Part shown: positions 3,439-48,934 of the stretch, one piece after another | How positions within the stretch are numbered: the stretch's first letter is position 1 | Layout of the letters: each line of letters begins with the position of its first letter | Assembly (NCBI GenBank): GCA_017444825.1 | Contig: JAFSVU010000055.1 | Span: 1 to 52,687, forward strand | Direction: 5' to 3' | Source: Clostridia bacterium | GTDB lineage: Bacteria > Bacillota > Clostridia > UBA1212 | Length of the DNA: 52,687 nt | The notes under the pieces: generated by a model | Seen by the model: only the letters and a program-made list of their open reading frames with translations | Database searches by the model: none | What the model was told of the DNA's origin: nothing | Program-made: the position numbers and the translations under genes

Positions 3439-5772
3439 TTACTCGCCCTGCTCCTCGAGGCTCACAAAGTATGCATTGACGTCGTTTGCAAGCCTGGCGG
3501 TCCTGAGCTTTCTGCCCTCTCCCGTCACGTGCCACTCGGAGTTCCAGAAATACCTCGGATTGAAGATGCTGTCCTCCGCTTTGGATATCACCACCGCGTC
3601 CAGATACTTGCCAATGGTCTCCTCGTATAGCTTTATCTCGTCCACCGGTTCCTCCGTGGTAGTTCCGTCCGTCGGCTCCGGAGTCGTTTTCTTTATCACG
3701 TGGTATCCCCCGGAGGCTTCGGTGAGGCAGCACCTGTCTATCGGTGCAAAGGAGAAAAGCACCTCGCAGCCGAGCTCCCTGATCTCCTTTATACGCCTGT
3801 TAAGGTTTTTACCGTAGTTTTTCAGAAGATTTACACCTTCCACAAAGGACATGGTGCCACCTTCTTTCAGGTACATGTCCTGCTTCGTCTTATAGTTCGC
3901 GGTGGTGGAGCCCACCTCATAGGACAGGTCGCCGTTTGTGTTTATCTCCCAGTGGTGATCCCTGTATGATTTTTCGGGCATATTGGTCCTGGTGCCGTTG
4001 AAATCCGCAAAGGTGGAAAAGACGTTGGTGTAGCTGCTTATGTCCACGGCGGCAATGGCGTCATAAGACCCCTCAAGGCACTGCCACATGGTGGTGTTGA
4101 AGCTTCTTAAGCCGCACTGGTAGCCGTTCATTTCCGGCGCGAAGATCACCACGTCGTCTTCACCTGCGACACGCTTCACCGTATCCAGCATAAACGATGC
4201 GCTGAAGCTGGCATGAAGGCCCAGGTTTATCACGTCGATCGCCTCTCCCAGTCTCTCCTTCAGCCTGTCCGAGTCGATGCCGAAAAGACCGCTGGAGCCT
4301 GACACGTGGATGAGCTTGCGCCCCTGCACCGTCATCAGTCTCTCGTATTTCACCGCGCTGCCCGTACCAAGCACCGAGGAGGTGTAGGCCGGGTTCCTGA
4401 CAGCCAGCATATTGAGAGTTTTAAGGTTTTCGCAGGAATCAAAGGCGGTGTCGTCCATTGAGATCACGCTGTCTGAAAGGAACAACGTCTCCAGCTTATC
4501 GCAGCCCTTGAACGCGTTTTCGCCAATGACCTCCACGTATTTGGGTACGTAGACTTCCGTTACCGGCTTCTCCTTAAATGCGCCATCATCTATCATGAGG
4601 ACCTTGAGCCCTTCGATCTTTTCGGGGATGACCACCGTATCGCCGGTGCCCTTGTACTCCTTTATGATCACAAAATCGTCCTTGATCTCATAGTCAAAAT
4701 CTTCTTCAGACGCATAAGGCACCCAAAGACAATATACTTCTTTGCCCTGCCATGGCTCCGGGGTGGTCTCAGGTTCCGGGGTCGCCGTGGTATCGGTCTC
4801 ATCAAGCCCGCTCTCAGGCTCATCGGTCGTTACAGGCGTCTCCGTAGGATCCCCCTGTGAGGCCCCGGAGGACTCTCCTTCCGGATCGGGAGACGGGGTC
4901 ACGTCTGGCTCAGGCGTCGGGGTCGGAGTTTCAGCTTCAGGGGTCACGGACCCCTCCGGGGTCTCCGTTTCGGTCTCCATTGGTGGCGGTATTATGTTCC
5001 AGCCCGGGCCGTAAAACTCGCCGGTGCCGTCCTCATTTTCAGTGTAACCTGCCAGCATATACCCCTCGCGGACGAAATAGCCTGTGTCGGGGAGCGCATT
5101 GGGGCACGTATAGAAGTCTCTCGGGAAAAAGGCGGTGGCAACGTCCGAATCGGTTCCGGAAATGGAGCCGCCGTTTGCGTGGTAAACTATCTTAAATTCG
5201 GTTCTTGAGGGATCTTCGCCCGGAAGCAGAGTCTCGCTCTTTTTCGGCTCGCTAAGGGTTATGGCAAGAGGCGTGGGCTCGGGGGTGGGCGTTATGACCT
5301 CGCTGATGTCGGGGGTGGGTATCTCGGTCTCATCCGGAGGAGTTTCTCCGGGGATCAGGGTCTCCTTATGGTCATCGGTGGCGAATGGCGTTGGCGTGGG
5401 AGTCTCCCCTCCCGGGCCCGGCGTCACCACCGAAACAGCGCCCCTTCTGAGAGAAACTTTGAGAGTAGTCGGGTATCTCGCCCCTGACAGAATTATCCTG
5501 CCCGTGGTCTCATCGTAGAGGCCGTTGCTGAGGTCCGAAATGGCGTAACCGTCCTGAACGCCCACCTCAAAAACCGCCATACCGCCTGCCTCTATGTCCA
5601 CGTAGGAAGCGGATCTGATGATCAATCCGTCCGCCTGCTCCAGCATGACCCGGATCTTTCCGTCCCCGCTGTTTCCCGAGCCTCCCGGCGTGCCAAAAAT
5701 GCCGCAGCCCGCAACGGTAAATGCAAGCAGCAGCATGATCAAGGCTATTGGTTTTGTGAGGAATCTTTTCAC
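3439..5772 (-). CDS. Lipoprotein with List_Bact repeat, BspA LRR and SGNH-like domain
   Basis: The 777-residue protein has a lipoprotein signal peptide with lipobox VAGC (C23). After it come a small beta domain (about 35-115), a Thr/Pro/Glu linker, a Listeria-Bacteroides (Flg_new) repeat at about 190-260, a second Thr/Pro/Glu linker (265-340), BspA-type LRR_5 repeats at about 375-455, and an SGNH-like domain from about 480 to the C terminus. The SGNH nucleophile motif SGSSG is at 491-495, but the position matching the catalytic Asp of its cluster paralogue is Asn (motif FWNSEWH), so activity is uncertain. It is exported and lipid-anchored, 12 bp upstream of the small membrane protein and the MBOAT gene. 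It may position glycan at the membrane or transfer acyl groups. Confidence 0.8.
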   Translation of the reverse strand: MKRFLTKPIALIMLLLAFTVAGCGIFGTPGGSGNSGDGKIRVMLEQADGLIIRSASYVDIEAGGMAVFEVGVQDGYAISDLSNGLYDETTGRIILSGARYPTTLKVSLRRGAVSVVTPGPGGETPTPTPFATDDHKETLIPGETPPDETEIPTPDISEVITPTPEPTPLAITLSEPKKSETLLPGEDPSRTEFKIVYHANGGSISGTDSDVATAFFPRDFYTCPNALPDTGYFVREGYMLAGYTENEDGTGEFYGPGWNIIPPPMETETETPEGSVTPEAETPTPTPEPDVTPSPDPEGESSGASQGDPTETPVTTDEPESGLDETDTTATPEPETTPEPWQGKEVYCLWVPYASEEDFDYEIKDDFVIIKEYKGTGDTVVIPEKIEGLKVLMIDDGAFKEKPVTEVYVPKYVEVIGENAFKGCDKLETLFLSDSVISMDDTAFDSCENLKTLNMLAVRNPAYTSSVLGTGSAVKYERLMTVQGRKLIHVSGSSGLFGIDSDRLKERLGEAIDVINLGLHASFSASFMLDTVKRVAGEDDVVIFAPEMNGYQCGLRSFNTTMWQCLEGSYDAIAAVDISSYTNVFSTFADFNGTRTNMPEKSYRDHHWEINTNGDLSYEVGSTTANYKTKQDMYLKEGGTMSFVEGVNLLKNYGKNLNRRIKEIRELGCEVLFSFAPIDRCCLTEASGGYHVIKKTTPEPTDGTTTEEPVDEIKLYEETIGKYLDAVVISKAEDSIFNPRYFWNSEWHVTGEGRKLRTARLANDVNAYFVSLEEQGE

Positions 5773-32154: not shown

Positions 32155-33699
32155 TCAGTTGGCGATCCGGATCAGCCACTCGTCATGGCGTTTCGCGTCG
32201 TTGATGAACGCCCTCTGGGCCACCACGTTCGTAGAGCCGATCAGGCTTTCCTTCTGGGCAAGGACCAGGTTGTGTATCCATGCGGAGCGGGCCTTGATAG
32301 CCAGACCGTTGGGGATCTTGTACACGAACCATTGGTTTCTCGTGATGTTTGAGGCGTTCAGCTGAAGCTGCACAGCGCCGTTGTCCGAGAAAATATTGCC
32401 GTTTGCGGGGCGGAGATACGTGTAGGAGTTCCTGTTCTTGATCATATAGGAGCCTGTGGTCGAGATATCCGTGGGTACAAGGTACCATTCATCCTTGAAG
32501 CTTTCGTTGTAAACATAGGGCCGCTGGGTCACGAGTGCTCCGTCGCCGCTGTTCCCGTCTGCCACCGACATGGTGTGATCGGTCCACCCCGTTCCGCCGC
32601 TGCCGCCGCAGGAGGATCTCGGTTTAATGGCAAAGCCTCCGTATGAGGTCATGTAGATGCGCCACTGCTGGCCTTCCGCCAATGTGTTGGCCGACTGGAT
32701 CAGCTGCACGTCGTATGCCGAATATGAGGACGGGGGCACCGTTATGACCAGACTGCTCCGGGCCGATTTGATGGTGTAGTAGCCGTTTCCGAGGGACGTG
32801 ACCTCCCATTTCTGGGCACTCGATCCGGTGTAGCTTCTGAGCTCCAGCCCCGCGCCAACAGCTGCCGAACCGTTGACCGGCTGAAGGTACTTGTCAATGT
32901 GCCTGTTTCTTATATAGTACGTACCGGTCTCCATCAGGTTTTTGATCCGGTATGTGAAGGTGATCATGGGCCTGTAGGAGGAGTATACCGATTCAGAGGA
33001 GCCGAATTCCTTGGCGCCGGTCGCGCTGCCTGACGTGAGGATGATCCTATTCGTGTCTGTGTACGTAAGTCTTTTCCAACCCTTGCAGAAGGAGGTGATA
33101 TCAAAATAAACCCTGCTCCCCTGGACGGCCATCGCCCCGCAATTCACCGAGGTGTCATACGTGCCGACGTTTAAATTGGTTACAGTGTTCTCATATATCG
33201 TGGGATCCACCGTAACGGGATAGACCGTGTCCGGGTCCTTCAAAAAGCTCTCCGGCACACTGACTGTCAGAACATACGCGGAACCCTTCCCCTTCGCATA
33301 CGTAACGGAACCGCCAACAGTATTTCCCGTGCTGTCGTAGGCAATTATTTCGCCCAGCCTCATGACGGTCTCTTTTTTCCCGTTGAGCAGTACAAGTCCG
33401 CCCTCATCCCTCGCCAATGTGAGGCCGCCGGCATCAAGGGTGAATCTGAAGGAATTCCTGCCTGTGTATTTTTCGAGTATTATGTCTTCTTTAATACCGT
33501 TGAGAAGAGGAGTATAACGGACCTTTGTGTTTTCACCGAAAACATTCGAATATGATACGGTCTCTTTCTCTTTAACGAGCTTTCCTCCCGTTTTTTCGGG
33601 AGCCAGTTTTATCTTCCCGCCCAGGTAACCAAAGGAAATACCGTCACTGATATCCTTCGGAAAAAGGACCGAGTAGTCGTTTGCTTTTACCTTGCTCAT
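32155..33699 (-). CDS. Ricin-type beta-trefoil protein, apparently missing its N terminus
   Basis: About 514 residues. The first half (about 10-225) resembles the region ahead of DNRLRE domains in WapA-like wall proteins: VRYTPLLNGIKEDIILEKY, TVYPVTVDPT and VYFDITSFCKGW. The second half has ricin-type beta-trefoil repeats with Q-x-W-like motifs (SSAQKWEV, EGQQWRIY, RNQWFVYK). Relatives are secreted, but there is no signal peptide after the chosen ATG (MSKVKANDYS) and the upstream open frame does not supply a convincing one. A 5'-truncated gene is therefore likely. A proper terminator follows it. Confidence 0.7.
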   Translation of the reverse strand: MSKVKANDYSVLFPKDISDGISFGYLGGKIKLAPEKTGGKLVKEKETVSYSNVFGENTKVRYTPLLNGIKEDIILEKYTGRNSFRFTLDAGGLTLARDEGGLVLLNGKKETVMRLGEIIAYDSTGNTVGGSVTYAKGKGSAYVLTVSVPESFLKDPDTVYPVTVDPTIYENTVTNLNVGTYDTSVNCGAMAVQGSRVYFDITSFCKGWKRLTYTDTNRIILTSGSATGAKEFGSSESVYSSYRPMITFTYRIKNLMETGTYYIRNRHIDKYLQPVNGSAAVGAGLELRSYTGSSAQKWEVTSLGNGYYTIKSARSSLVITVPPSSYSAYDVQLIQSANTLAEGQQWRIYMTSYGGFAIKPRSSCGGSGGTGWTDHTMSVADGNSGDGALVTQRPYVYNESFKDEWYLVPTDISTTGSYMIKNRNSYTYLRPANGNIFSDNGAVQLQLNASNITRNQWFVYKIPNGLAIKARSAWIHNLVLAQKESLIGSTNVVAQRAFINDAKRHDEWLIRIAN

Positions 33700-33904
33700 A
33701 AAAAACCCCAAATAAACCATTCGGCAAATTAACCGGAAAAATGATTGCGAAGCATCAGCCGTATAAAAATGCTGCAAGATGTCGCAAGCCTTTCTGCTGT
33801 GTCATAATCGGGTCACATTTTACTACTTAGCGCCAAATGATTCAAATGGGGGTTTTTGAGTGTCGGTTTGTTTTATCTGTTTACTATTCGGTTTTTATCC
33901 TTTT

Positions 33905-35650
33905 TTAGGGAACAATACTCCCCCGGACGTTTTCGAAAACAGTCTTCGGGAATTCATATACGCCAATGTCGGAACCTCCGGTCAGAGGAATTCCGGGCTC
34001 TACGGAAACACAGAAGCAGTCGCTGTATTCTATGAAATAAACTATCAGCTCTCCGCAGGTCAACGTTCCTGCCACAACGCCTCCGTCGCCTTCCATGCGT
34101 CGCTCTCTGTAGACTTTTCCTCTTGACTCGAGACATTTCAGCAGAATATCTCTGAAGAGGATCATGTCGTCCTTTTCTATCTCATAAAATCTGCCCTCAC
34201 CCGAAGCTGCAGGCTCTCCAAAATAAAATGAAGTCTCTTTTTCAAAATTCAGGTGCTTCAGATACCTGTACTCGTCCCAGAAAGCCGAATCCGTTTTTTC
34301 GTCTTCATATTCCGGTACGATATCTTTTTTAACTATTTTTCTTGTGTAGTATACCGAGGCGTTTCCCGGCGCGTTTCCCGCTGCCAGGTAGTAGTTTTCA
34401 AACACCGCATAAGACTGTTTGTCTACGGTCTCGGTCTTCTCGGCAAAGCCCTTCACATCCCCGGTCTTCCATTTTCCGGACTCCGTGAAGTAGCAGAGCA
34501 GTTTTCCGTACCCGGCCGAATACGCGTAGAAGCACGAGAAATCGCTGCTCCATGTGCAGCAGTTCCCGTCATAATCGTCAAGCAGTACGGTCTCCTCGCC
34601 TGTGGTCGTGTCTTTGAGCAGTATCTTCCCAGTGCCGTCATCGAAGGCGGTCATCACAAGAACCTTTTCGTTTGAAAGCTCCCTGCCTGTTTTTGCGTCG
34701 TATGCCGCTACGACGACGCCGTTTTCCGCCAGCCAGCCGCCGTTTTTAACGGAAAAGACCTTGCCTCCGCAGGAGTAATTGGTTTCTCCCGCGACCTCGG
34801 TAAGGACGTTGGTGACGGTATTGATGAAATAGACACTGTCGTCTTTCTTTATCAGGATAATATCTTCGGCAAGAAACTCTGCGGCGACGAATTCCGCATC
34901 TTTGCTGTCCGCCAGCTTAACGTATTTTCCGAAGGCCGTGTCATATGCGTATACCGAATGGGTGCCTTTCCCGTCGTTTACCGCCAGGCAGAGGATGCCG
35001 TTGCAGAGACTCTTTGATGAAGAAACAGTTATGCTGTCATAGCTTCTGCAGCCTTCGGGGAGAGGAACACGCCGGGCCTTGTCCGACTTTCTGTCCAATA
35101 TCCAAAGGCCTGTCACCTTTTCTCCTGAAGTCTCCCTAATCACTGCGGCGGCCAGGTTCCCGTCCGCACTGTCAACGGCAAAATCAATGCAGGACATCTT
35201 CGGGAGACTGATGCCGGAGGCGTTTAGAAACGCGTGTTCAAAGCAGCAGAGCTCGCCGGTGTATTGGTTATAGAAAACACCGCTGCAGTTCGCATGGACA
35301 CCTTTTACGTCCGTCGAGATGAGTTTTGCCCCGTAGTTTTCCGCATTGAAAGTTACTATATCGTCGTTCAGTCCCTTGTAGGACAATTTAGTTGCGCTGA
35401 GTGTCTGCCCCGATGGAGGGTTTTGGTCCGGTGTCTCACCCGGGTCTTTTCCTCCGATCATCTTCGGGAGAAATATGCTTAACACCACCGCAGCCGTAAT
35501 AATGATAGCGGCGCAGGAAGCTGCAATCGGGAGTATCCTGCTGAAGAACAGCTGCTTTCTCGGGACCGGCCGCTGTTCCAGTTCATAGGCCTGCTGCTGA
35601 AGATCCTCGTCAAGCCTTGCTATTACATCATAAAGTTCGCTTCTTTTCAT
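33905..35650 (-). CDS. Anti-sigma-factor-like single-pass membrane protein
   Basis: About 581 residues from the ATG at 35650. A short cytoplasmic N-terminal helix (MKRSELYDVIARLDEDLQQQAY) precedes one membrane helix at about 38-62, then a Pro-rich stretch and a large extracytoplasmic region that looks like a beta-propeller (repeated short strands, e.g. VYAYDTAFGKYVKLAD, VYFINTVTNVLTEV, VVAAYDAKTGREL). The start overlaps the stop codon of the XRE-sigma gene (TGATG), implying translational coupling. By analogy with sigma/anti-sigma pairs it would hold the regulator at the membrane and sense an external signal. I do not recognise a named family. Confidence 0.7.
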   Translation of the reverse strand: MKRSELYDVIARLDEDLQQQAYELEQRPVPRKQLFFSRILPIAASCAAIIITAAVVLSIFLPKMIGGKDPGETPDQNPPSGQTLSATKLSYKGLNDDIVTFNAENYGAKLISTDVKGVHANCSGVFYNQYTGELCCFEHAFLNASGISLPKMSCIDFAVDSADGNLAAAVIRETSGEKVTGLWILDRKSDKARRVPLPEGCRSYDSITVSSSKSLCNGILCLAVNDGKGTHSVYAYDTAFGKYVKLADSKDAEFVAAEFLAEDIILIKKDDSVYFINTVTNVLTEVAGETNYSCGGKVFSVKNGGWLAENGVVVAAYDAKTGRELSNEKVLVMTAFDDGTGKILLKDTTTGEETVLLDDYDGNCCTWSSDFSCFYAYSAGYGKLLCYFTESGKWKTGDVKGFAEKTETVDKQSYAVFENYYLAAGNAPGNASVYYTRKIVKKDIVPEYEDEKTDSAFWDEYRYLKHLNFEKETSFYFGEPAASGEGRFYEIEKDDMILFRDILLKCLESRGKVYRERRMEGDGGVVAGTLTCGELIVYFIEYSDCFCVSVEPGIPLTGGSDIGVYEFPKTVFENVRGSIVP

Positions 35651-36099
35651 CACACACACCTGTCCAAAAACTCTCTGAGCGTCTTTCTAATAACAACCAA
35701 TCTGTTTCTTACTGTGCCGTAGCCCTTTCCAATCTTGCGCGCAATGCCTTTAGAGCTCATGAACCTCACATACCTCAAAAGGAATATCTCTCGATCCCGT
35801 TTATCGAGAGACTCGGAAAACTCATCGATCAGCTTTGACGCTGTTTCGGATTTCATTCCCCTTGGGATGCAAGAGTCAAGTTCTTCATAGACAGTTGAAT
35901 CGCCAAGAATAAGGAGCTCGGGTTCGACGTCGAAATACTCAGCCATCATTTCCACCGCATCGTAACCCGGCAGCCTTTGGCCGAGTTCCCATTTGCTGAC
36001 AAGATGCCGTGAAATACCAAGCCTGTCGGCAAGCTCGTCTTGCGTCAGGCCCTTATTTATTCTAAGGTTTTTGATTTTCTCGCCAACGTCAAGACCCAT
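35650..36099 (-). CDS. Fusion of XRE helix-turn-helix and sigma-70 region 4
   Basis: The 149 residues have an N-terminal XRE/Cro-CI domain (about 5-62: IKNLRINKGLTQDELADRLG, ISRHLVSKWELGQRLPGYDAV). A C-terminal sigma-70 region-4-like segment follows (about 95-145: SLDKRDREIFLLRYVRFMSSKGIARKIG, YGTVRNRLVVIRKTLREFL). Region 2, which contacts the -10 element, is absent, so it is probably not a free-standing sigma factor. It could bind its operator through the XRE part and touch RNA polymerase or a -35-like site through the other. The ribosome binding site is strong (GGAGGAGA). It is coupled to the anti-sigma-like gene by a one-base overlap. Confidence 0.85.
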   Translation of the reverse strand: MGLDVGEKIKNLRINKGLTQDELADRLGISRHLVSKWELGQRLPGYDAVEMMAEYFDVEPELLILGDSTVYEELDSCIPRGMKSETASKLIDEFSESLDKRDREIFLLRYVRFMSSKGIARKIGKGYGTVRNRLVVIRKTLREFLDRCV

Positions 36100-36249: not shown

Positions 36250-39200
36250 TCAGCCTTCGTTTTTCTTTCTCTTTTTTTGCATGAAAATGCAGGGTGCGAT
36301 GAGAGATGCGGTTATCACTATCACCGGCACAAGGGCGAATGGATTCCCTGCGTCGCCCGTTGGCGGCACCGGAGGATGTGCGATGACGTTCACTTCCACC
36401 GTCTTTGAGAAAACGGTATCTTCCCGTCCGGAAACGTTCATAAGCCCCGCAGGCTGGCCGTACTCGTTCAGTGTAAGAGACGCGCCGCCGGAGGAAGCCC
36501 TGTAGCTGTCCGTAATGAAAAGTGACGTGTTTTCTTTCACCACGGAAACGGTGACTGTGGCCGTGCCCTCTTTGAGAGCAGTGACGTTGCCGAGAGCGTC
36601 AACGGAAGCCACAGACGGGTCGTCAACACTGTAAACGATGCGGTAGCCGTTTCTTGCGTCATAGGGTGCTATCGTGCCGCCAAGGGCCAGAGTTTCGCCT
36701 GCGTCTATATCAGCCTTCCCGTTCTCGGCGTTCAGCAATATATCTTCAGGCTGAGCGGCTTTTTTGACCGTCCTGTAGATGTACAGCTTTTCGGTTTTTG
36801 CGGCCTCTCCGTTTGCGTAAACGGCCACCTCGAGCTCGCAGACACCGTCTTCGTCATAGAGCCCGTCAGGCACGTTGAAACGGAGCATTTTCCTCTCGGT
36901 CTCGCCCACGCCAAGCTTCAGCTCTTCGGCGTCGGTCAGCGACTTGTATACGGTCTGCTTTTCGTCCCCTTCTCCCTCCGTCACGGCATAACCTACTGCG
37001 ATATATCCGTCGTAGGCTTTATTGCCGTCGTTTGACACGTCAACGTAAAATTCAAAGGAGCCGTCCGCCTTGGTTATGAGGTCCGCGGAGTCGTAGTCTA
37101 TCTTTGCGCTGTAGGGCAGCCTGAAATAATTTACGACCGGGTAATCGCACAGGTCATCGTCCCATGAAGTCACCCTCAAAAGATAGTCGTCCGGGGCATC
37201 CGGATAGACAAGATCTTCGAAGACGGCGTTAACCTTGTCGTCTGACTGAAAATGGTCCTCAAACACCTTTGTTCCGATGGGTGTTTCGTTCCTGTCCTTG
37301 TCGATGAGGTCGACTTTGACCGTTATCTTATTGCTGGGTAGAGACGCAAGGTTCTTGACTGTCACCGAAAGGTCCGTCTTCTCGCCCGGCAAAGGAAGAC
37401 CGCTCGGGTTAAGTTTTAAGCTTATTTCCTGTCTGTTGCCGCCCTTGAGAAGCATGAGATTGCTGTCGTAGGACGAAACAGTGCCCTCGTCATCCTTGTT
37501 TACGGTCTTGAAGGAGATGAGCATTTTGCGGCCGACACCAATGTAAGCCACCTCGGATATGTCCTGATCCTTTTCGACGGAAGCCACTTTGGTGATGTTG
37601 CCCCACATTCCGTAGGGCTGATCCACGCCCTCGTCATCCTTGAACGTGCCGTAATCGGGGTCGTATTCCCGGAAGTAGACGGCGGGCACGTTGCCCTCAT
37701 CCGTTTCCTCCCAGTCGATCCAGACTATGCAGAGGTTCCCGTCGGGCTGTACCGTCACGAAATAGCTGGCGGCCGCATTGGCGATCTCACCCATGTTGTT
37801 CACGCCGTAAACCGCCTGATTTGCCACGTATTCCGAGTGGTCGTAAGTGCTGCTTAGGTATCCCACCACGTCGCCGCAGTTCAGCTTGCCGTCCTGGTTC
37901 CAGTACATCAGCACCGTCCCGTCGTAAGCGATGAGCTGAGGATTGGTGTCCGAGGTCTCTTCGTCCGAAAGAAGGATCGGGCTTGACTGCTCCATGGTCA
38001 CAAGGTCGCAGGTCACAAGAAGAAGCTCTCTGTCCTTGTCTGTCTGAACGGATCTGTCGGTGTCGACCGAGTAGACCACGTACGCCTTGCCGCCAACCGC
38101 CGCAGCCGAGACCTCGCGGATCGTGGACTGGGAAACTTTTCTGTCGCTCTGGGTGCTAAGGTAGCGCATTCCGTTCAGAACGCCCTTGCCATTGGCGGAT
38201 TCGTAGGCCTTATAGCCGGCCTCCTTTTCCGTGTAGTCTTTTACTATCTCGCCGTTTTGATCAAGGACCTTGAAGCAGACGTTGCTGTAGGAGTTATACA
38301 GGAAGTCGCCGATCCGGTCCAGATCGTCCTCCGTGAGGGTCAGGCCCTCTGTCTGGTAGTCTGTGGAGATATATGCGACAAAAACGTTCCCGGTGGCTTC
38401 GTCATATGCGATGGAAGGCACTCCCTCGAAACCGTAGTCTGACGTGAGCTTTTTGATCTCGCCCGGTACGCCGTTTTCGTCGAAAATGCAGTAACTGATG
38501 TCTGCGCAGTTCAGCATCTCGCCAATGTTTTCAACCTCCGCGTTTCCGAAGGATCTGTCAAGGTCGCTCCAAAGGACAAGAACGCGCCCTCCGCCGATCT
38601 GAGCCGCTTTGAGATTGAAGTCAAAGGTGCCGTCGTTATCAAGATAGACCGGCTCTGTCTCGTTGCCCTCCCAGTCAATAATACTGCAGGCCACCGAGGA
38701 GTAGTCGCTCGCTCCCCTTCTGCTGTCATCGTCGAGCCTCAGGTAGAGGACCTTGCTTCCGTCGCCAATGGGAACCAGCGCCGGATCCAGGGCCTTAACA
38801 GTGTTTTCGATCTTTTTCTCCGCAAGGATCCTGTTGTATGGGTCGGTGCTGCCCGAGGACGTCATGGCATATGCGCCGGATAAGAGTGAACTGCCCCTGG
38901 GGTTGTTTTCAAGGTCGCCGTAGACTTTGGTGTCGGATCTGGCGTCTCTGTATGACCTCAGAAGCTTTTTGTTTTGGAATTTCGATGCGTTTTCCACGCC
39001 GGAGAAGTCCATCAGACCTGTGTAACCGTCGGTCTTGAACATGCCGTAGCTTGCTCTCGCCATGGATATCCTCGCGGTCACCTTCATAATGACAGCCTCC
39101 GCGTCAAGGTTGAACGACACGATGCCTGCGCCGTTTTTCCAGGGCTGATAGTCGATGTCCATCACCATGGATCCCGCGATACCTATGGTCATCAGACCGA

Positions 39201-42200
39201 GCTTGCCGACGCCTGCGCCGAGTTCAAAGAATATTTTTAAATGGAAAGCGCTTCCGGATTCCATTTGATCCTGGACAGTCTTGTTGAAATAACTCCATTC
39301 GCCGGTGAGCTTGATGGGCTTTCCGCTCTGTGCGTCGCCGTAAAAGAGAAATTCACCTTCCGCCAGGCCGTTAAACTTTATGTACGTCGGAACGCCCCAG
39401 ATAGTATATTCTCTGGTTGCCGAGCCCTGCACTTTGAAGTCTGCGTACATCGTGAGACAGTCAAAATACATCTGATCGTCCGTAACGACAAACGATAAGA
39501 GCACGTTGATGGAGTATGTGAAAACAACGTCTGATTTCCTGTTTCCGGCCTTGATGGCAGGGGGGTTCTGCATTTCGCCTCCGTTATCTTCAGCGCCGTC
39601 AATGAACTCCCAGTCGTCCGCAGCTATATCCGCCGGGGTCTCGGGATTTGACGGATCTGCGGGGTCTGACTGGCCAATGGGCTCCGGCTGTCCTTCGGGA
39701 TCCGTTTGAGGCACTTCGCCTCCGGTTCCTGTATCGGTTGTGCTCCCGCCGCCGGTGCCTGTATCGCCGGTGCCTGTATCACCGGTGTCCGTTCCTCCGG
39801 TGTCCGTTCCTCCGGTCTCTGTCCCGGTGCCTGCATCAGAGGTTCCGGTACCCTCCGTCTGAGTTCCGGTTCCCGTAGGAGGATCTTTGTATATCACCTT
39901 GCCGCCTGTGTCCGCCACGTTGTTAATGTGGCTCAGGATACGGATCGCCCGTTCGTTTGCGCTCATCTCGGAATAGCCCGGTGTCTTTCGGGTGGCCTGA
40001 ACCGCTTTCTTAATAGCTCCCGCGGAGCCGTAAGTGATCGTAAAGAAGTGCTTCATCTTGCTTCCGCTGCTTCCGGAGCTGCCTGCAAGCGCTGTGGAGG
40101 ATGATCCCTGAGCTTCCTTGGGCTCCACGTCATAGTCGCTTCCGAAAGAGAAGTTGGCGGTCATTTCGCCGAGCACAGGCAGCGTCACGCTGTCCAAAGG
40201 ATCAAAATCCGGGAACTCCACCGAACCTTTGCCCGGTTTCAGCTTCATGGAATAGCCCGTGTCGAACTCGCCAAGGCCCCTGCCCTTCTGATCGTAAAGC
40301 TCGACCGTCAATGTTCCGTTGACGGTAAGCTTGTCGCTTACGACAAATGCTGACTCATAGGTCCAGCCCTCCGTGTCACTCTCCTCTGCGATCCACTCCT
40401 TAAAGAGGGCCCCATTGCAGTCATAACTTCTCAAAACAAGCTTCTGAGCCCGGTAACCGGGGGCAATGACCGCGTGGATGCCCAGCTTGATGATGTTATT
40501 GGTTATGTCTATGCCGGTGGTGTCCATGTCGGAGCCCACCGTCATACGGTCTATCTGATAGTTCGGATTCTGGTAGGGAAGAACGTAAACCGTGGTACCG
40601 TTGCGGGTAAAGATCGAAACGCCCTGGTAGATCCTGTCGTCCATGGTTATAGCGATGCAATAGCCAAGGTTGTCCGCATAGGCAGGCAGGTAAACGGTGA
40701 AGCAGCCGTTTTTGTCTGTCGTTGCATTGGTGTAGTAATCCACGTTGTTGACCGTGATCTTTTCCCCGGGATCGGAAGACAATACAGCCACATTGGCGCC
40801 TGCCACGGGTATGCCCGCCACGTCAACGTTCTCCGCGGTTATATCCACAAAGCTCGGCCTCTTGATCGTTCCGCCCTTGGTCACGACCTTGCCTCTCACA
40901 AGGGTGCCGCCCTCATCCACGGCCCTGTCCACAAGGTAAAACGTGAATTCCATATCGTGGTCATCCACCTCAAAGGCATATATATCGCCAATGCAGGGAA
41001 CGAATCTCACGTCGTCGTTGAGACGCACTTCGCCCTCCACCGCGTTTCTGGTCCAGTAGCCGGTGCGCGATCTTGTAAAGCCTTTTTCATCCGGGTTTTC
41101 GGGTAAGACGTAGAGGGTCACAATGTCCCCCGGAGTCATGTTGCGGAAAGTGTACGTTCCGTCGCCGTTGTCGGTGTATTCGCAGTTTGCCGTAAACGCA
41201 TATCCGGCCATGTTTGTTGCCCGGTTCTGATATTGAATGAAGGAGCCCGGGTACTTCCAGGAGACGGTTATCTCAATATTCTCCTCGTAGAAAAGGGGCT
41301 TCACCGACATGCCTTTGGTGAGCATGACTTTTTCGCCGGGGGCAATGTGCTCCAGGGTGCCGTCAGCCCTTGTGATTTCGATCTTATCGCATTTATAGCC
41401 GTGAGAAGGATATGCAAATATGAACAGCTCGTCGCCCTCGCGCCACTCGCCGCTTGCAACGTCTTCATTTCGGTACGTTTTATCGCCAATGCGGAGCTCT
41501 CCCCGTTCCGGGTCGTAATCCTCGACCGCGACAGAGCCGATATATGCTCCTCTGACCACCGGAATTACCGAAATATAGTAGCAGATTATCCCGGGATCCG
41601 TGTCGTCGTACACGACTGTCTTGATGTCATTGGCGTTAAGGGTGTCGCTGCAGGATTTCAGGACCTGACCCGAGCCCTTGACATTATACTCCACGGTAAA
41701 TGCTTTTCGTGAAGCAGCCGCTTCGGTAATTTGATAGTCGATGGTGGAAAGATCAAAGCCTCTGTATACCCACTCGGGAAGATCAAAGTTTCCGGCCTTA
41801 TAGGTCACTGTTCTTACGATATCCGCCGCCGAGGTGCCGTTAAACTCACGGTATTCCCCTTTAACGTTCCGGGCGTCCGTATCCGCCCATGCTTCATTGT
41901 ACAAAGTTAAAGGATAGAGCCTGATCTCGTTGATCTCTATATCGTTCCACGTGAGTTCTTCCACGGTATATTCGCGATTGTTCTTCCACTTCAGCATGAA
42001 GCGCTGAAGCTCATCGGGCCACATCCCGCTTGCACCCCTATAGAAAGAGGGCAGTCCGAGAGACCTGTAAAATTTAAACGACATCTGGTCGGTGCTCCAG
42101 GAGGTGTATTTCTGTTCGCCCCAGGCTTCTCTGACGCCAAGAGTCAAAGTGCCTGATTCCCCTTGATCAAGCTTAACTGCCGGAAGCGCATCATAGACCT

Positions 42201-43764
42201 GTTCTCCCACTAAGATGGGATGCCCGTATATTCCGAAATAATATGAGTCCTTTTTATTCAAAAAAGACCAGGTCTGTGGCTTGGAGCTGCTGTCCCTTTT
42301 TACGGTAAAACTGACTTCTATTTTCTTTACGCCCATCATATTTGCGTAAAAACCGTTCAGATCGTTGAAAAGACCTGCGAAACTGCCGCTGTCCTTAACA
42401 CTGTCAACGTCGATCGTGAAATACTTGAGCGTGCTGTCACTGTCGTAAACGGGTGTGGCGCCGCCCCTTAATGCAGCCCTCGGGAGGATCTGAATGACCG
42501 TATTGGAGACGTCCGCTTCCGCGCTTCCCGCCTCCACGTCCAGCACAACGCCAATTTCCTTCACCTCGGTCTGATCCCGGGTGGACGTCTTGAGAGGGAC
42601 TATAAGCGTCTTTTGCTTTTCGCCCGGCAGGAACACTGACGTTGTGTCAACAGGAAGATAGTCCTTTGCGGCGTCTGCGTTCAGGCTCACCGTGGCCACT
42701 CTCACCTCTGTAAAATCGTTCAGACATCCTTCGCGGACAATATCTACCGAGGCGCAGATCTCATCCGATCCCACCGTGACAAAAGACGACGCAAAACCGA
42801 CAGTGCCGGGCTCCGTCTCATCGTTGTCTTCGATCACCACCGTGCTTCCCACGATCTCGCCGATCTCAGCACCTCCCTCGGGGTTGCAAATACCGAGGGA
42901 AAAGATCTCCTCGGGGTCATATTCTTTGTCTTCGAGAGCTTTTATGACGATGACTTTTTCGTTCTGGCCGTCCTCGAAAACCACCCTCAGCGAGGCTCCC
43001 ACCGTCGCGTCATACACTGCGGATGCAACGAGGTTCTCATCGTTGTTGCCAATGAGACTCTCCATATCCACCAGGTCGGTGTCCACCATTCCGTTCGGAG
43101 CCGTCTTCTCGCCAAGGATACTGTCCTTCAGTTCGTGGAGCGGCGACTTATACGGTGCATCCGTGTCGTCCTGCCCGCTCTCCGCGGCCTTCTTTTTGTT
43201 CGTACCGTCCACAATGCGCTCCGCTTCCTCATCAGACACCTTGAGGATATCCGAAACAAGCTCTATCGAGGCCTCCCGGAGCTCGGCGGCCTCCTCGTCG
43301 CTGAGGGTATTGGCGTTTTCGTCATAGCCGATTATTTTCTTGTAGACCTCGTCCGTCAGGATCTCATCTGCCGTGATGTAGTCGCCGCCGCTCTCTTCAA
43401 GGTAGATCTCCGTCAAAGTACCTGTGTACTCGTCGCTCTGTTTCAGCTTCCTGTTTTTAACGCTGACGGTGTAGTCGGTTCCGAACTTCGCGGTGATGTC
43501 GATCGCTTTGAGTTCCACCGAGACCCTGCCTTCCGTTCCGCCCATGCGTATGAGCTTCAACGCGGTCTCTTTGCCTTCATTTACCGATATCTCCGACTCG
43601 AAAAGCTCGATGACGCCTTTAGGATAGCGGGCGGCATAGTCAGGCGAGATACTGTAGTCCGCAGTTATCTCGTCCCCTCCGCCGAATACGCCGACCGGAA
43701 CGTAAGCTTCGAGCATGATGACAGTGAGAAAAATACATATGATTTTTGGAAAGACCTTTTTCAT
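36250..43764 (-). CDS. Giant Calx-beta surface protein with sortase-type C terminus
   Basis: About 2,504 residues. I chose the ATG at 43764, preceded by TGAGGTC; an in-frame ATG lies four codons earlier. After a signal peptide come Calx-beta-like repeats (about 45-450; e.g. ELFESEISVNEGKETALKLIR and VNEG/DYT phrases), beta-rich domains, a carboxypeptidase-regulatory-like domain (GKVVTKGGTIKRPSFVDI), and a Gly/Thr/Asp-rich linker (about 1295-1385) of repeated GTGDTGTG-type units. The second half has a beta-propeller-like region (VLYLRLDDDSR, RVLVLWSDLD, NVFVAYISTD), CARDB-like domains and a Big_2 domain near the end. The C terminus is PPTGD, a hydrophobic helix and KKRKK, a sortase-substrate pattern. 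It is probably a long adhesin or matrix protein. Confidence 0.85.
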   Translation of the reverse strand: MKKVFPKIICIFLTVIMLEAYVPVGVFGGGDEITADYSISPDYAARYPKGVIELFESEISVNEGKETALKLIRMGGTEGRVSVELKAIDITAKFGTDYTVSVKNRKLKQSDEYTGTLTEIYLEESGGDYITADEILTDEVYKKIIGYDENANTLSDEEAAELREASIELVSDILKVSDEEAERIVDGTNKKKAAESGQDDTDAPYKSPLHELKDSILGEKTAPNGMVDTDLVDMESLIGNNDENLVASAVYDATVGASLRVVFEDGQNEKVIVIKALEDKEYDPEEIFSLGICNPEGGAEIGEIVGSTVVIEDNDETEPGTVGFASSFVTVGSDEICASVDIVREGCLNDFTEVRVATVSLNADAAKDYLPVDTTSVFLPGEKQKTLIVPLKTSTRDQTEVKEIGVVLDVEAGSAEADVSNTVIQILPRAALRGGATPVYDSDSTLKYFTIDVDSVKDSGSFAGLFNDLNGFYANMMGVKKIEVSFTVKRDSSSKPQTWSFLNKKDSYYFGIYGHPILVGEQVYDALPAVKLDQGESGTLTLGVREAWGEQKYTSWSTDQMSFKFYRSLGLPSFYRGASGMWPDELQRFMLKWKNNREYTVEELTWNDIEINEIRLYPLTLYNEAWADTDARNVKGEYREFNGTSAADIVRTVTYKAGNFDLPEWVYRGFDLSTIDYQITEAAASRKAFTVEYNVKGSGQVLKSCSDTLNANDIKTVVYDDTDPGIICYYISVIPVVRGAYIGSVAVEDYDPERGELRIGDKTYRNEDVASGEWREGDELFIFAYPSHGYKCDKIEITRADGTLEHIAPGEKVMLTKGMSVKPLFYEENIEITVSWKYPGSFIQYQNRATNMAGYAFTANCEYTDNGDGTYTFRNMTPGDIVTLYVLPENPDEKGFTRSRTGYWTRNAVEGEVRLNDDVRFVPCIGDIYAFEVDDHDMEFTFYLVDRAVDEGGTLVRGKVVTKGGTIKRPSFVDITAENVDVAGIPVAGANVAVLSSDPGEKITVNNVDYYTNATTDKNGCFTVYLPAYADNLGYCIAITMDDRIYQGVSIFTRNGTTVYVLPYQNPNYQIDRMTVGSDMDTTGIDITNNIIKLGIHAVIAPGYRAQKLVLRSYDCNGALFKEWIAEESDTEGWTYESAFVVSDKLTVNGTLTVELYDQKGRGLGEFDTGYSMKLKPGKGSVEFPDFDPLDSVTLPVLGEMTANFSFGSDYDVEPKEAQGSSSTALAGSSGSSGSKMKHFFTITYGSAGAIKKAVQATRKTPGYSEMSANERAIRILSHINNVADTGGKVIYKDPPTGTGTQTEGTGTSDAGTGTETGGTDTGGTDTGDTGTGDTGTGGGSTTDTGTGGEVPQTDPEGQPEPIGQSDPADPSNPETPADIAADDWEFIDGAEDNGGEMQNPPAIKAGNRKSDVVFTYSINVLLSFVVTDDQMYFDCLTMYADFKVQGSATREYTIWGVPTYIKFNGLAEGEFLFYGDAQSGKPIKLTGEWSYFNKTVQDQMESGSAFHLKIFFELGAGVGKLGLMTIGIAGSMVMDIDYQPWKNGAGIVSFNLDAEAVIMKVTARISMARASYGMFKTDGYTGLMDFSGVENASKFQNKKLLRSYRDARSDTKVYGDLENNPRGSSLLSGAYAMTSSGSTDPYNRILAEKKIENTVKALDPALVPIGDGSKVLYLRLDDDSRRGASDYSSVACSIIDWEGNETEPVYLDNDGTFDFNLKAAQIGGGRVLVLWSDLDRSFGNAEVENIGEMLNCADISYCIFDENGVPGEIKKLTSDYGFEGVPSIAYDEATGNVFVAYISTDYQTEGLTLTEDDLDRIGDFLYNSYSNVCFKVLDQNGEIVKDYTEKEAGYKAYESANGKGVLNGMRYLSTQSDRKVSQSTIREVSAAAVGGKAYVVYSVDTDRSVQTDKDRELLLVTCDLVTMEQSSPILLSDEETSDTNPQLIAYDGTVLMYWNQDGKLNCGDVVGYLSSTYDHSEYVANQAVYGVNNMGEIANAAASYFVTVQPDGNLCIVWIDWEETDEGNVPAVYFREYDPDYGTFKDDEGVDQPYGMWGNITKVASVEKDQDISEVAYIGVGRKMLISFKTVNKDDEGTVSSYDSNLMLLKGGNRQEISLKLNPSGLPLPGEKTDLSVTVKNLASLPSNKITVKVDLIDKDRNETPIGTKVFEDHFQSDDKVNAVFEDLVYPDAPDDYLLRVTSWDDDLCDYPVVNYFRLPYSAKIDYDSADLITKADGSFEFYVDVSNDGNKAYDGYIAVGYAVTEGEGDEKQTVYKSLTDAEELKLGVGETERKMLRFNVPDGLYDEDGVCELEVAVYANGEAAKTEKLYIYRTVKKAAQPEDILLNAENGKADIDAGETLALGGTIAPYDARNGYRIVYSVDDPSVASVDALGNVTALKEGTATVTVSVVKENTSLFITDSYRASSGGASLTLNEYGQPAGLMNVSGREDTVFSKTVEVNVIAHPPVPPTGDAGNPFALVPVIVITASLIAPCIFMQKKRKKNEG

Positions 43765-43780
43765 AGACGACCTCATAAAT

Positions 43781-43870
43781 AAAAAAGCACTCGGCAGACA
43801 GGTTCAGCCGGTGCGATCAGTGGTTTGAATTCTTTCTGCTTTCTACGACGTTGGCAATATCCGCCACGTC
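43781..43870 (-). ncRNA. Structured leader with terminator hairpin (candidate attenuator/riboswitch)
   Basis: The predicted transcript begins near 43870 and immediately forms a hairpin: GACGT at 43870-43866 pairs with ACGTC at 43851-43847, GGC with GCC, one bulged base, 7-nt loop. It ends in a terminator-like hairpin (GCAC at 43814-43811 with GTGC at 43790-43787, plus an inner GGC/GCC) followed by six T at 43786-43781. That terminator lies only 17 nt before the start codon of the giant surface-protein gene, just ahead of its ribosome binding site, the geometry of transcription attenuation. I do not recognise a known riboswitch consensus, including c-di-GMP-I, despite the EAL gene nearby. Confidence 0.5.
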
Positions 43871-43876
43871 CATATA

Positions 43877-43907
43877 ATTTTAGCATGACAACCCATGGTC
43901 ATGTCAA
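43877..43907 (-). promoter_or_regulatory. Promoter and inverted-repeat operator of the giant surface-protein gene
   Basis: On the minus strand a consensus TTGACA (43907-43902) and TAAAAT (43882-43877) are 19 bp apart, slightly long. CATGAC at 43884-43889 and GTCATG at 43898-43903 form an inverted repeat across the spacer and the edge of the -35, a good position for a repressor or a MerR-like activator (which favours 19-bp spacers). The regulator is unknown. Confidence 0.55.
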
Positions 43908-43993
43908 TGGGCAAAAGCGGAAAAACATTGCTTTTTAAAGGAAAAAACATACTTTTTTACGATCTATGGGATGTGCAGGGTCAGCGGTATCTG

Positions 43994-44662
43994 TCAGACG
44001 ATCCTTCCGTCCGCCAGTTTTATCACCCTCCTGCATTTTTCCGCGACAATTGGGTCGTGAGTTATGACGATGACCGTTTTCCCCGCGTCGTTGAGATCCT
44101 TCAGCAGGTTCATGACGGTTTCGGAGCTCTCGCTGTCCAGTGCCCCCGTCGGCTCGTCCGCAAGAATAATGTCGGGGTCGTTCACCAGCGCCCTCGCTAT
44201 AGCCACCCGCTGCTTCTGTCCACCGGAGAGCAGCTTGACCTTGTTCTTCATATGAGTCTCCGGGAAGCCGGCTTTTTTCAGGGCTTCGATGGCTTTCTTT
44301 CGCATTTTCCCCATCGACATCTTCGTGAAATACAGGGGGAGCATCACGTTGAAGACGGCGTTTTCATTGGCGATAAGGGAGTAGTCCTGGAACACAAAAC
44401 CGATACGGTCATTCCTTATGACCGCGTTCTTCGAATCCTTGGAAAAATCAACGGTCTCCCCGAACAGCTCAAGCTCGCCGCTGTCCTGACGGTCCAGCAG
44501 CCCGATTATATTGAGAAGTGTCGTCTTCCCGGACCCGGAGGCGCCTATAACAGCCACCATATCCCCCTCTTCAACGGAAAAAGAGACTCCGTCGAGGGCC
44601 TTCACCGACATATCCTTCAGCACGAAAGTTTTGTGCAGATCTTTAACATTAAGAACAGTCAT
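43994..44662 (-). CDS. ABC transporter ATP-binding protein, MacB/LolD/FtsE type
   Basis: The 222 residues carry a complete ATPase: Walker [10 protein letters not shown] (40-48), Q-loop in FVFQDYSLI, signature LSGGQ (145-149), Walker B IILADE (165-170) and the D-loop, plus a switch His in VIVITHDP. The length and the PTGALDSES phrase place it with the MacB/LolD/bacitracin-export type that works with FtsX-like permeases. It begins directly after the stop codon of the permease gene upstream. The substrate may be a peptide, lipoprotein or antibiotic; none is named by context. Confidence 0.93.
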
Positions 44663-47008: not shown

Positions 47009-48934
47009 TCATGCCGTCTTCTGCAGGAAGTCCTTCAGCTGCTCGATGGGCACAGGGCGTGAATACTTGTAGCCCTGAAGGTATGTGGCAGACATTTCCC
47101 GGCAGCGGGCTTCGTCGCCTTCGTTCTCAACGCCTTCATAAAGCACGGCGTAATTCATATCCCGAAACATGTTCGCCAGGTTTTCCACGATCCGCGCCGA
47201 ACGGGGATCCGCGCCGCTGGCGATGACCATGGTGCGGTCAAACTTGATGATGTCGAAGGGCAGCTCCATGATCCTCTCCATGTTAGAGTAGCCTGTGCCG
47301 AAATCGTCCAGATAGAAGCGAATGCCCTCCAGGTGCAGCTGCTCGACTTTCTCCTTCATGATGACGAAATCCGTCTCGTTGCGCGATTCGGTCAGCTCCA
47401 GGGCAATGCGCTCCCCGGGGATGCCGTTGCCGGCGATGATGCTGTCGATGTCGCTGCAAAAGGCGTCGTCCTTAAGCTCCAGCACAGACACGTTTACACT
47501 TATGCGCTCAATATTGAGGCCTGCCCCGATCAGCATTTTGATGGTCCTGCAGGTCTTATGGAGGATGATCTCCGTCAGCACGTGAATGTAGTTACGGTCC
47601 TCCGCGATGGAAATGAACTCATCCGGAAACACCAGACCCGTCTTTTCCAGCTTCAGGCGCATCAGAGCCTCAGCGGTGTCAAAACGCCCGGTGCGAAGGT
47701 TGTATACAGGCTGGCAAAACGCCAATACTCTCGGGTCGTCCAGGTCCCGTTTGTTGTAGATGTCCGTCAGCTCTTTCAGGATGTATTCATCCCGGTTGAA
47801 GCGATCGATCTCGTCAGGGCCCACGAAGCGCACAGTATTATCAGGCATACTGTACTCCACGCTGCGGATGAGGCTTTCGTATTCACCCTTCCGGCTGATC
47901 TCGTCGATAGATTCGCCGATCACGATCTTATAAGTGTTGTGCAAGCGCTGAAACTGCTCGTCAAAAGCTTTCAGCACGACACCGATCTGGGTCTCATAGT
48001 TCGGATTGAGTTTCTTCGGGAAGATAAGCACCAGCCGCCCGTTGGTAAGCTGGAACAGCACGCAGTTCCGGAAGCGGAATAACTCCACGGAGAAACGCCG
48101 GACCTGGGACCGGATATCCTCCGGCAGAGTCTTGCCCTCTTCGTCGTATTCAGGCAGCAGAAGACTCATAAAGACAAAAGCCTGACTCCGGGTGTACAGA
48201 CTCTGCACCAGGTTCGCCATAGCCCGCTTGTCCACGGCGCCAAGGGCCACGTTATACGGTGTGGAGTGCATGATATACAGCATGGCGACGGTGGGAAATG
48301 CAAACGACATGGTGGTCAGCGAAGAAAAGTTCATCGCAAGCTGGCAAAGCTGGATCAAAACGGAAACAGCCATAGTGCCGTAGAAACCGTACATTACCCG
48401 TTTGTACACAAGATGTCTCACCCGAGTCATCAGCACAACCAGGAATGTCACATAGGTCACAAAGCCGATCAAGTATACGGCGGCGTGGTTCACGACTATT
48501 CCGTCGGATGTGATATGGAACCCGACCCCAAGCAGTGACAAAACCGCGTCGGTCGCCACAATGGCGACGGTCAAAAAGGTGCAGAAGATCGCAACGTGCC
48601 GCGCTTTGCGACGCTCCAGTTCGGAGACCACTGTAATATATAGCGCAAAGAGGAAGAAAAGATTAAATATCGCAGCATTGTATAGAATGCGCATCCCGTA
48701 GATCGGTAAATAGCTCCCCGGATCGTTCGTCGTCAGCAACGCGTGATAAACAATGTTGATGACTGCGGCAACTGCCAATTGAACAATGACAGTCAAAAAA
48801 ATGCGCAGACTGCGGTTGCGGTTGACGTAACTGGCCAGCAGAAGTATCGCCATCACAATGCATATGGCGATCACCGCGAGGTCGCCCGCGGGCGAATAGT
48901 TATCAAAGCTGACTTGCGCAGAATGGGTTATCAT
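47009..48934 (-). CDS. Membrane-bound EAL-domain c-di-GMP phosphodiesterase
   Basis: The 641 residues have an N-terminal sensor of about seven membrane helices (20-220). A middle domain (about 235-370) looks like a GGDEF fold that has lost the GGDEF motif. The C-terminal EAL domain (about 400-640) keeps the key residues: EAL at 422-424 in AEALMRL, NVSV, the Glu in LELTES (513-517), DDFGTGYS at 543-550 and the Glu of YEGVENE near 600. It should hydrolyse c-di-GMP to pGpG at the membrane. The ribosome binding site is GAGGGAT. A remnant of a GGDEF gene lies just upstream, suggesting that a cyclase partner was lost. Confidence 0.9.
   Translation of the reverse strand: MITHSAQVSFDNYSPAGDLAVIAICIVMAILLLASYVNRNRSLRIFLTVIVQLAVAAVINIVYHALLTTNDPGSYLPIYGMRILYNAAIFNLFFLFALYITVVSELERRKARHVAIFCTFLTVAIVATDAVLSLLGVGFHITSDGIVVNHAAVYLIGFVTYVTFLVVLMTRVRHLVYKRVMYGFYGTMAVSVLIQLCQLAMNFSSLTTMSFAFPTVAMLYIMHSTPYNVALGAVDKRAMANLVQSLYTRSQAFVFMSLLLPEYDEEGKTLPEDIRSQVRRFSVELFRFRNCVLFQLTNGRLVLIFPKKLNPNYETQIGVVLKAFDEQFQRLHNTYKIVIGESIDEISRKGEYESLIRSVEYSMPDNTVRFVGPDEIDRFNRDEYILKELTDIYNKRDLDDPRVLAFCQPVYNLRTGRFDTAEALMRLKLEKTGLVFPDEFISIAEDRNYIHVLTEIILHKTCRTIKMLIGAGLNIERISVNVSVLELKDDAFCSDIDSIIAGNGIPGERIALELTESRNETDFVIMKEKVEQLHLEGIRFYLDDFGTGYSNMERIMELPFDIIKFDRTMVIASGADPRSARIVENLANMFRDMNYAVLYEGVENEGDEARCREMSATYLQGYKYSRPVPIEQLKDFLQKTA

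What the first reader, a model, noticed from the sequence alone, without database searches (positions are those of the whole stretch)
43764..43907. Leader with 5' hairpin and pre-RBS terminator ahead of a giant surface-protein gene
A promoter with 19-bp spacer and inverted-repeat operator is followed by a leader of about 105 nt. The leader starts with a stable hairpin and ends in a terminator only 17 nt before the start codon. This geometry is typical of riboswitches or protein-controlled attenuators, yet I recognise no known class. Control of a huge adhesin by such a switch, near an EAL phosphodiesterase gene, is worth testing.
Basis: partly seen in the sequence, partly recalled or inferred. 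Interest (0 to 1): 0.52.

Follow-up and report, generated by a model that had tools for sequence, protein, structure and literature searches.

The report
Orphaned MerR-type promoter with leader terminator
A gene for a giant cell-surface protein is driven by a promoter built for a MerR-type regulator that this genome seems to have lost, and its transcript must pass a conserved stop-hairpin just before the start codon; it looks like a two-step brake made of known parts, not a new riboswitch.

Summary
On the minus strand there is a TTGACA-19-TAAAAT promoter with a dyad, a hairpin starting near +1, and a terminator-like hairpin with six U ending 16 nt before ATG 43764. The same leader precedes the orthologous gene in two congeneric genomes (2 of 57 others searched). 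In both, a divergent MerR-family gene sits upstream; no upstream same-strand gene could own the terminator. Across the three species the promoter (24/31) and terminator (23/28) are more conserved than four-fold sites (0.379); the linker is neutral (8/30). The first hairpin's sequence is conserved only where merR is present, where it overlaps merR's own promoter.

In the window's genome merR is gone: an 86-nt relic remains and no MerR_1 domain is detected. So the 19-bp spacer and operator are best read as a MerR switch now without its regulator, and the terminator as a leader attenuator. Regulated read-through is not shown. No Rfam family, conserved leader peptide, shared antiterminator, LoaP or conserved EAL neighbour was found. 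The riboswitch reading is not supported. The parts are known kinds; the combination, and the orphaning of the promoter, are the modestly interesting points.

The parts
43877..43907 (-). MerR-type promoter: TTGACA, 19-nt spacer, TAAAAT (with TG upstream of the -10)
   Evidence: Sequence; identical at 24 of 31 columns in three species, against 0.379 at four-fold sites, P 8.5e-6
43884..43903 (-). Operator dyad CATGAC/GTCATG in the spacer region (its first arm overlaps the end of the -35), centred between 43893 and 43894
43847..43870 (-). 5'-terminal hairpin, about +1 to +24
   Evidence: 5 of 1000 shuffles as stable in each of three species; stem register differs in the window
43815..43846 (-). 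Leader linker, unconserved
   Evidence: 8 of 30 columns (43844-43815) identical in three species, neutral
43781..43814 (-). Terminator-like hairpin (GCACCGGC ... GCCG-A-GTGC) plus TTTTTT
   Evidence: -13.2 kcal/mol, 2 of 1000 shuffles; stem-loop identical at 23 of 28 columns, P 2e-6; 7 aligned pairs formed in all three species, invariant, and an eighth closing pair only in the two relatives
43771..43774 (-). Shine-Dalgarno GAGG
   Evidence: Conserved in the three species
36250..43764 (-). Giant surface-protein gene (2504 aa from ATG 43764): signal-peptide-like N-terminus, Calx-beta, Big_2, C-terminal PPTGD plus hydrophobic stretch and KKRKK
   Evidence: Pfam; orthologs 88% and 68% identical. 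Signal peptide and sortase-type anchor read by eye; no anchor family hit in Pfam or NCBIfam
43851..43878 (+). Relic of the divergent merR promoter, TTGGCA-16-TATAAT (TTGACA-17-TATAAT in G004)
   Evidence: Scan, 11 of 12; alignment
43908..43993 (+). Decayed 5' end of the divergent merR gene with its upstream leader
   Evidence: Global alignment to the merR 5' regions of G001 and G004: 0 of 2000 shuffles as high for either; local alignment to G001 runs to 44014
43994..44662 (-). ABC transporter ATPase now directly upstream, same strand
   Evidence: PF00005

Best explanation
The region is a MerR-type control region followed by a leader attenuator. In the arrangement kept in two related genomes, a MerR-family protein from a divergent gene binds the dyad inside an over-long 19-bp spacer, represses its own overlapping promoter and, when induced, untwists the DNA so that RNA polymerase can start the giant surface-protein gene (inferred from architecture and from what is established for the MerR family). 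Every such transcript must then pass an intrinsic terminator lying between the promoter and the ribosome-binding site, so that a share of transcripts ends as a roughly 90-nt RNA and output of this very large protein stays low (inferred). In the window's genome merR has been lost down to a relic. The promoter keeps spacer and operator but has a -10 nearer to consensus (TAAAAT for TACGAT/TAGGAT), and the terminator has a more stable hairpin with the U run directly adjacent. The gene should therefore be expressed weakly and without its inducer, perhaps helped by read-through from the ABC operon (inferred). The 5' hairpin most likely owes its sequence conservation in the relatives to the overlapping merR promoter; it may also protect the RNA's 5' end.
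For: Divergent MerR_1 (PF13411) gene upstream of the ortholog in both relatives; it is the only over-threshold MerR_1 match in each of those two genomes, and the other four of the six genus genomes, the window's included, have none. 19-nt spacer and dyad centre conserved, with the same centre as in a mer operator that lies between merR and merT. MerR-target promoters have 19-20 bp spacers (PMC10028694, passages seen). merR relic in the window. Terminator conserved above neutral in all three pairs: 26/29, 23/29, 26/29, P 0.01, 3e-4, 8e-6. With a divergent upstream gene in both relatives the terminator serves no upstream same-strand gene. The 5'-hairpin segment is conserved between the two merR-bearing genomes (27/33, P 2e-4) but neutral in both comparisons with the merR-less one (22/33, 17/33).
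Against: No expression data: promoter activity, start site, MerR binding and termination are all untested. Only three sequences, two of them probably metagenome assemblies. Terminator pairs are invariant, so covariation neither supports nor refutes an RNA hairpin. In G001 the U tract is short (UAUUUUUG), so termination may be weak there. The four-fold-site baseline is only a rough neutral yardstick, and gap placement can inflate identity; the loop alone is above it at P < 0.05 in only one of three pairs, and the promoter between window and G004 is borderline (P 0.056). The 5' hairpin is stable in the window too although its sequence is not conserved, so an RNA role cannot be excluded. MerR_1 absence rests on a 97.4%-complete draft in 56 contigs. 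The dyad matches 9 of 14 positions, and no shuffle test was made of it.
Confidence: 0.6

Rival explanations
1. Regulated attenuator: a trans-acting protein or small RNA recognises the conserved terminator hairpin and its loop and sets read-through, as a second input beside MerR.
For: Loop letters are kept at 8 of 11 positions in three species, P 0.02, and an unpaired A on the 3' side of the stem recurs.
Against: Pairwise the loop exceeds neutral at P < 0.05 in only one of three pairs. No candidate factor: no LoaP above cut-off in any of 6 genus genomes. No antiterminator shared by the three species.
Confidence: 0.15
2. The hairpin is not a working terminator but an mRNA stability or translation element close to the ribosome-binding site, with the 5' hairpin as a 5'-end protector.
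For: Both hairpins are individually stable in all three species; the U tract in G001 is weak.
Against: The U run right after the stem in the window and UAUUUUUU in G004 are terminator-like. A pairing of loop with Shine-Dalgarno has three invariant pairs and one pair changed on both sides in one of three sequences; the structure tested with it included did no better than shuffles (335 of 500).
Confidence: 0.14
3. A riboswitch senses a small molecule (c-di-GMP was proposed) and switches the terminator.
For: Terminator shortly before a ribosome-binding site in a leader of about 105 nt; C. difficile controls the adhesin CD2831 by a c-di-GMP-II riboswitch (PMC6447587, passages seen).
Against: No Rfam match at gathering score in the window, and only two chance-level matches (E 1.7 and 2, eukaryotic families) up to E 10 in the region. 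No conserved aptamer-like core: linker 8/30. No alternative pairing common to the three species. Leader model confined to three genomes of 31.
Confidence: 0.05
4. The hairpin is simply the terminator of the ABC-transporter operon that lies upstream on the same strand.
For: In the window it is, by eye, the first G+C-rich terminator-like hairpin after the ABC ATPase stop at 43994.
Against: It is present in G004 and G001, where the upstream gene is divergent, and it lies downstream of a promoter conserved with it.
Confidence: 0.06

Closest known systems
mer operator-promoter (merR/merT intergenic region)
   Same: Divergent regulator gene, TTGAC-type -35, 19-bp spacer, dyad at the same distance from the -35
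   Different: Target is a giant surface protein; the leader holds a terminator; in the window the regulator gene is gone
Terminator-type leader attenuators (protein- or RNA-controlled)
   Same: Intrinsic terminator between promoter and ribosome-binding site
   Different: No antiterminator, leader peptide or binding factor identified
c-di-GMP-II riboswitch upstream of CD2831 in Clostridioides difficile
   Same: Leader control of a sortase-anchored surface protein (PMC6447587, passages seen)
   Different: No Rfam match and no conserved aptamer here
LoaP antitermination leaders (recalled)
   Same: Hairpin plus downstream terminator in the leader of a long transcription unit
   Different: No LoaP above the family cut-off in any of 6 genus genomes

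Membership tests
MerR-family-controlled promoter | 19-20 bp spacer between -35 and -10 | tested here: met
   19 nt in the window, G004 and G001
MerR-family-controlled promoter | Dyad operator in the spacer | tested here: met
   9 of 14 symmetric positions, same centre in all three and in the mer operator; no shuffle test made
MerR-family-controlled promoter | Cognate MerR-family gene, usually nearby | tested here: inconclusive
   Met in G004 and G001; in the window only a relic and no MerR_1 domain genome-wide
MerR-family-controlled promoter | Activator binds and untwists the promoter | not testable with these tools
   Needs binding and transcription assays
Leader attenuator (intrinsic terminator) | G+C-rich hairpin followed by a U run between promoter and start codon | tested here: met
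   conserved in relatives
Leader attenuator (intrinsic terminator) | Alternative antiterminator or a read-through factor | tested here: inconclusive
   No alternative pairing shared by the three species; no LoaP over cut-off. Other factors not tested, and a fixed attenuator needs none
Known riboswitch classes (Rfam 15) | Covariance-model match | tested here: not met
Leader-peptide attenuator | Conserved short reading frame overlapping the leader | tested here: not met
   The window's 18-codon frame from 43873 has no counterpart start in G004 or G001 (read by eye)
ANTAR-type two-hairpin leader (recalled: hexaloops with A1 and G4) | Conserved hexaloop letters | tested here: not met
   First-hairpin loops are ACAGAC (G004) and AGACAG (G001); no hexaloop of this type in the window (read by eye)

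The most novel reading that the evidence does not exclude
The hairpin with its conserved loop is the docking site of an unknown antitermination factor that works together with MerR activation, so that initiation and escape of one giant surface-protein transcript are gated separately; the window's genome shows what selection does to such a gate (better -10, stronger terminator) after the activator is lost.
Probability: 0.12. Interest if true: 0.6.

Novelty: new member of a known kind. Interest (0 to 1): 0.36.

Why it matters
It turns a vague 'possible riboswitch' into a testable picture: an apparently single-target MerR-type switch for a giant surface protein, with a leader terminator that is still conserved in a genome that has lost the regulator. 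Three close relatives, two with and one without the regulator, form a natural experiment on how a promoter built to need an activator evolves without it.

Tried and rejected
Riboswitch: Rfam at gathering score and up to E 10, leader model over 31 genomes of the order: nothing beyond the three known copies. Leader peptide: not conserved. LoaP: none over cut-off in 6 genomes. Loop-to-Shine-Dalgarno pseudoknot: no better than shuffles. Column covariation of the 5' hairpin: my first reading as 'compensatory' (note) was wrong; the window uses a shifted register, and 4 of the 8 relative-type pairs are not formed there while one more has a gap. A second operator: near-matches with 3 mismatches in G001 and G004 lie inside a coding gene; the one in G000 (C22) also reads through open frames; the reversed-pattern control gave 2 hits in G001, 4 in G004 and 0 in G000 against 2 real hits in each. 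Other copies of the leader: none in plasmids or phages at blastn sensitivity. The giant protein alignment gave no relative in viral contigs, and in genome contigs two loci whose contig lengths equal those of the two relatives already in hand. Distant homologs at 25-28% identity (G050, G045, G039): their upstream sequences, printed, show no counterpart to my eye. That merR homology extends to 44014 is doubtful, since the last 20 nt also encode an ordinary ABC C-terminus; I place the end at 43993.

Full report
Observation. The region was read on the minus strand. A TTGACA box (43907-43902) and TAAAAT (43882-43877) are separated by 19 nt, and the arms CATGAC and GTCATG form a dyad there. The expected start, about 43870, is the first base of a hairpin (43870-43847). 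After a linker comes a second hairpin (43814-43787) followed by six T (43786-43781), then GAGG and ATG 43764. Each hairpin is more stable than nearly all dinucleotide shuffles (5 of 1000 and 2 of 1000 as good), while the whole leader is not (102 of 1000).

The gene. It encodes a protein of 2504 aa with Calx-beta and Big_2 domains and, read by eye, a signal peptide and a PPTGD-hydrophobic-KKRKK end. Of 57 other genomes searched, 13 gave some match, but only two hold near-full-length orthologs: G004 (88%) and G001 (68%). They probably correspond to the metagenome assemblies RUG12790 and UBA1243; contig lengths and contig numbers agree, but the identity is inferred.

Relatives explain the promoter. 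In G004 and G001 the gene upstream is divergent and belongs to the MerR family (PF13411). It is the only over-threshold MerR_1 match in each of these two genomes; the other four genus genomes, including the window's, have none. MerR-target promoters are described as having 19-20 bp spacers (PMC10028694, passages only). I therefore read the operator as a MerR operator. A pattern search found one exact match in each of the three genomes; each genome also has one match with three mismatches, and those of G001 and G004 are the same stretch of a coding gene.

The window has lost its regulator. Between the operator and the ABC ATPase stop codon, the plus strand aligns to the 5' region of merR (0 of 2000 shuffles reach the score, against either relative), but the gene is cut off there by the ABC cassette. 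No ortholog and no MerR_1 domain was found in this 97.4%-complete draft; the control search rang in 12 of 14 known genomes. A TTGGCA-16-TATAAT box on the plus strand is the relic of merR's own promoter (TTGACA-17-TATAAT in G004). Relatives of one ABC permease occur in G001 and G005 on other contigs, and not in G004.

What is under selection. Taking four-fold sites of the giant gene as a rough neutral yardstick (295 of 779 identical in all three), the promoter (24 of 31) and the terminator stem-loop (23 of 28) are conserved (P 8.5e-6 and 2e-6), the ribosome-binding region moderately (13 of 19, P 0.007), the linker not (8 of 30), and the 5'-hairpin segment marginally (17 of 32, P 0.057). Pairwise, the 5'-hairpin segment is conserved between the two genomes with merR (27 of 33 against 0.50) but neutral against the window (22 of 33 against 0.70, 17 of 33 against 0.46). 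This fits a segment that doubles as merR's promoter and was released when merR was lost. The terminator is above neutral in every pair (P 0.01, 3e-4, 8e-6); when in the window's lineage merR was lost is unknown, so this does not prove selection after the loss. Against a purely DNA reading of the 5' hairpin stands that the window still folds one, at least as stable, with a shifted register.

Terminator. In the relatives no same-strand gene lies directly upstream, so the hairpin cannot have arisen as an upstream gene's terminator; it is a leader element. Its aligned pairs never vary where both letters exist, so there is no covariation proof. The window's version is the most stable of the three (-13.2 against -8.5 and -11.7 kcal/mol for the segments folded) and lacks the ATAT between stem and U run. 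Whether read-through is fixed or regulated is not shown. I found no antiterminator shared by the three species, no conserved leader peptide, no Rfam family and no LoaP over cut-off.

EAL and c-di-GMP. The EAL gene (47009-48934) is separated from the leader by an ABC operon. In the relatives' neighbourhoods only 29-32% identical EAL stretches occur, both in the far part of the G004 contig (L036), none in the G001 stretch held. I see no basis for a c-di-GMP link.

Literature. Searches for MerR with spacer and divergence, MerR with attenuation and leader RNA and MerR with promoter and orphan terms returned no paper, as far as titles and abstract openings show, on a MerR-type promoter with a leader terminator on a surface-protein gene. 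Only the listings were seen except for the passages named (a look into PMC6200980 found none of the terms), and the library lacks most subscription journals.

Verdict. The structure is real and, judged by conservation, functional. It is best explained by known parts: a MerR-type promoter, here orphaned, and a leader terminator. It is not a new riboswitch on present evidence.

Noticed in passing
window 35650-36099 (-); L039:2840-3325 (-): HTH (Cro/CI type) plus sigma-70 region 4 protein near the giant gene in the window and beside merR in G001, 32% identical; possibly another regulator of the locus.
   Followed up: partly
L036:8852-8914: A 21-residue stretch matching the C-terminus of the window's ABC ATPase (71%) on the same contig as the giant gene in G004, apparently a truncated ABC gene; hints at repeated rearrangement here.
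   Followed up: partly
L039:4408-4467: In G001 an in-frame ATG inside the terminator hairpin would extend the giant protein by 19 residues (frame opens at 4408); in G004 the same frame stops after 13 codons, and in the window that ATG is absent.
   Followed up: partly
window 33905-35659 (-): 584-aa protein overlapping the HTH/sigma gene, no Pfam or NCBIfam match.
   Followed up: no
window 32155-33777 (-): Protein with ricin-type beta-trefoil lectin repeats, PF14200.
   Followed up: no
L037:11262-13958 (-): BspA-type leucine-rich-repeat protein gene beyond merR in G004, another likely surface protein.
   Followed up: no
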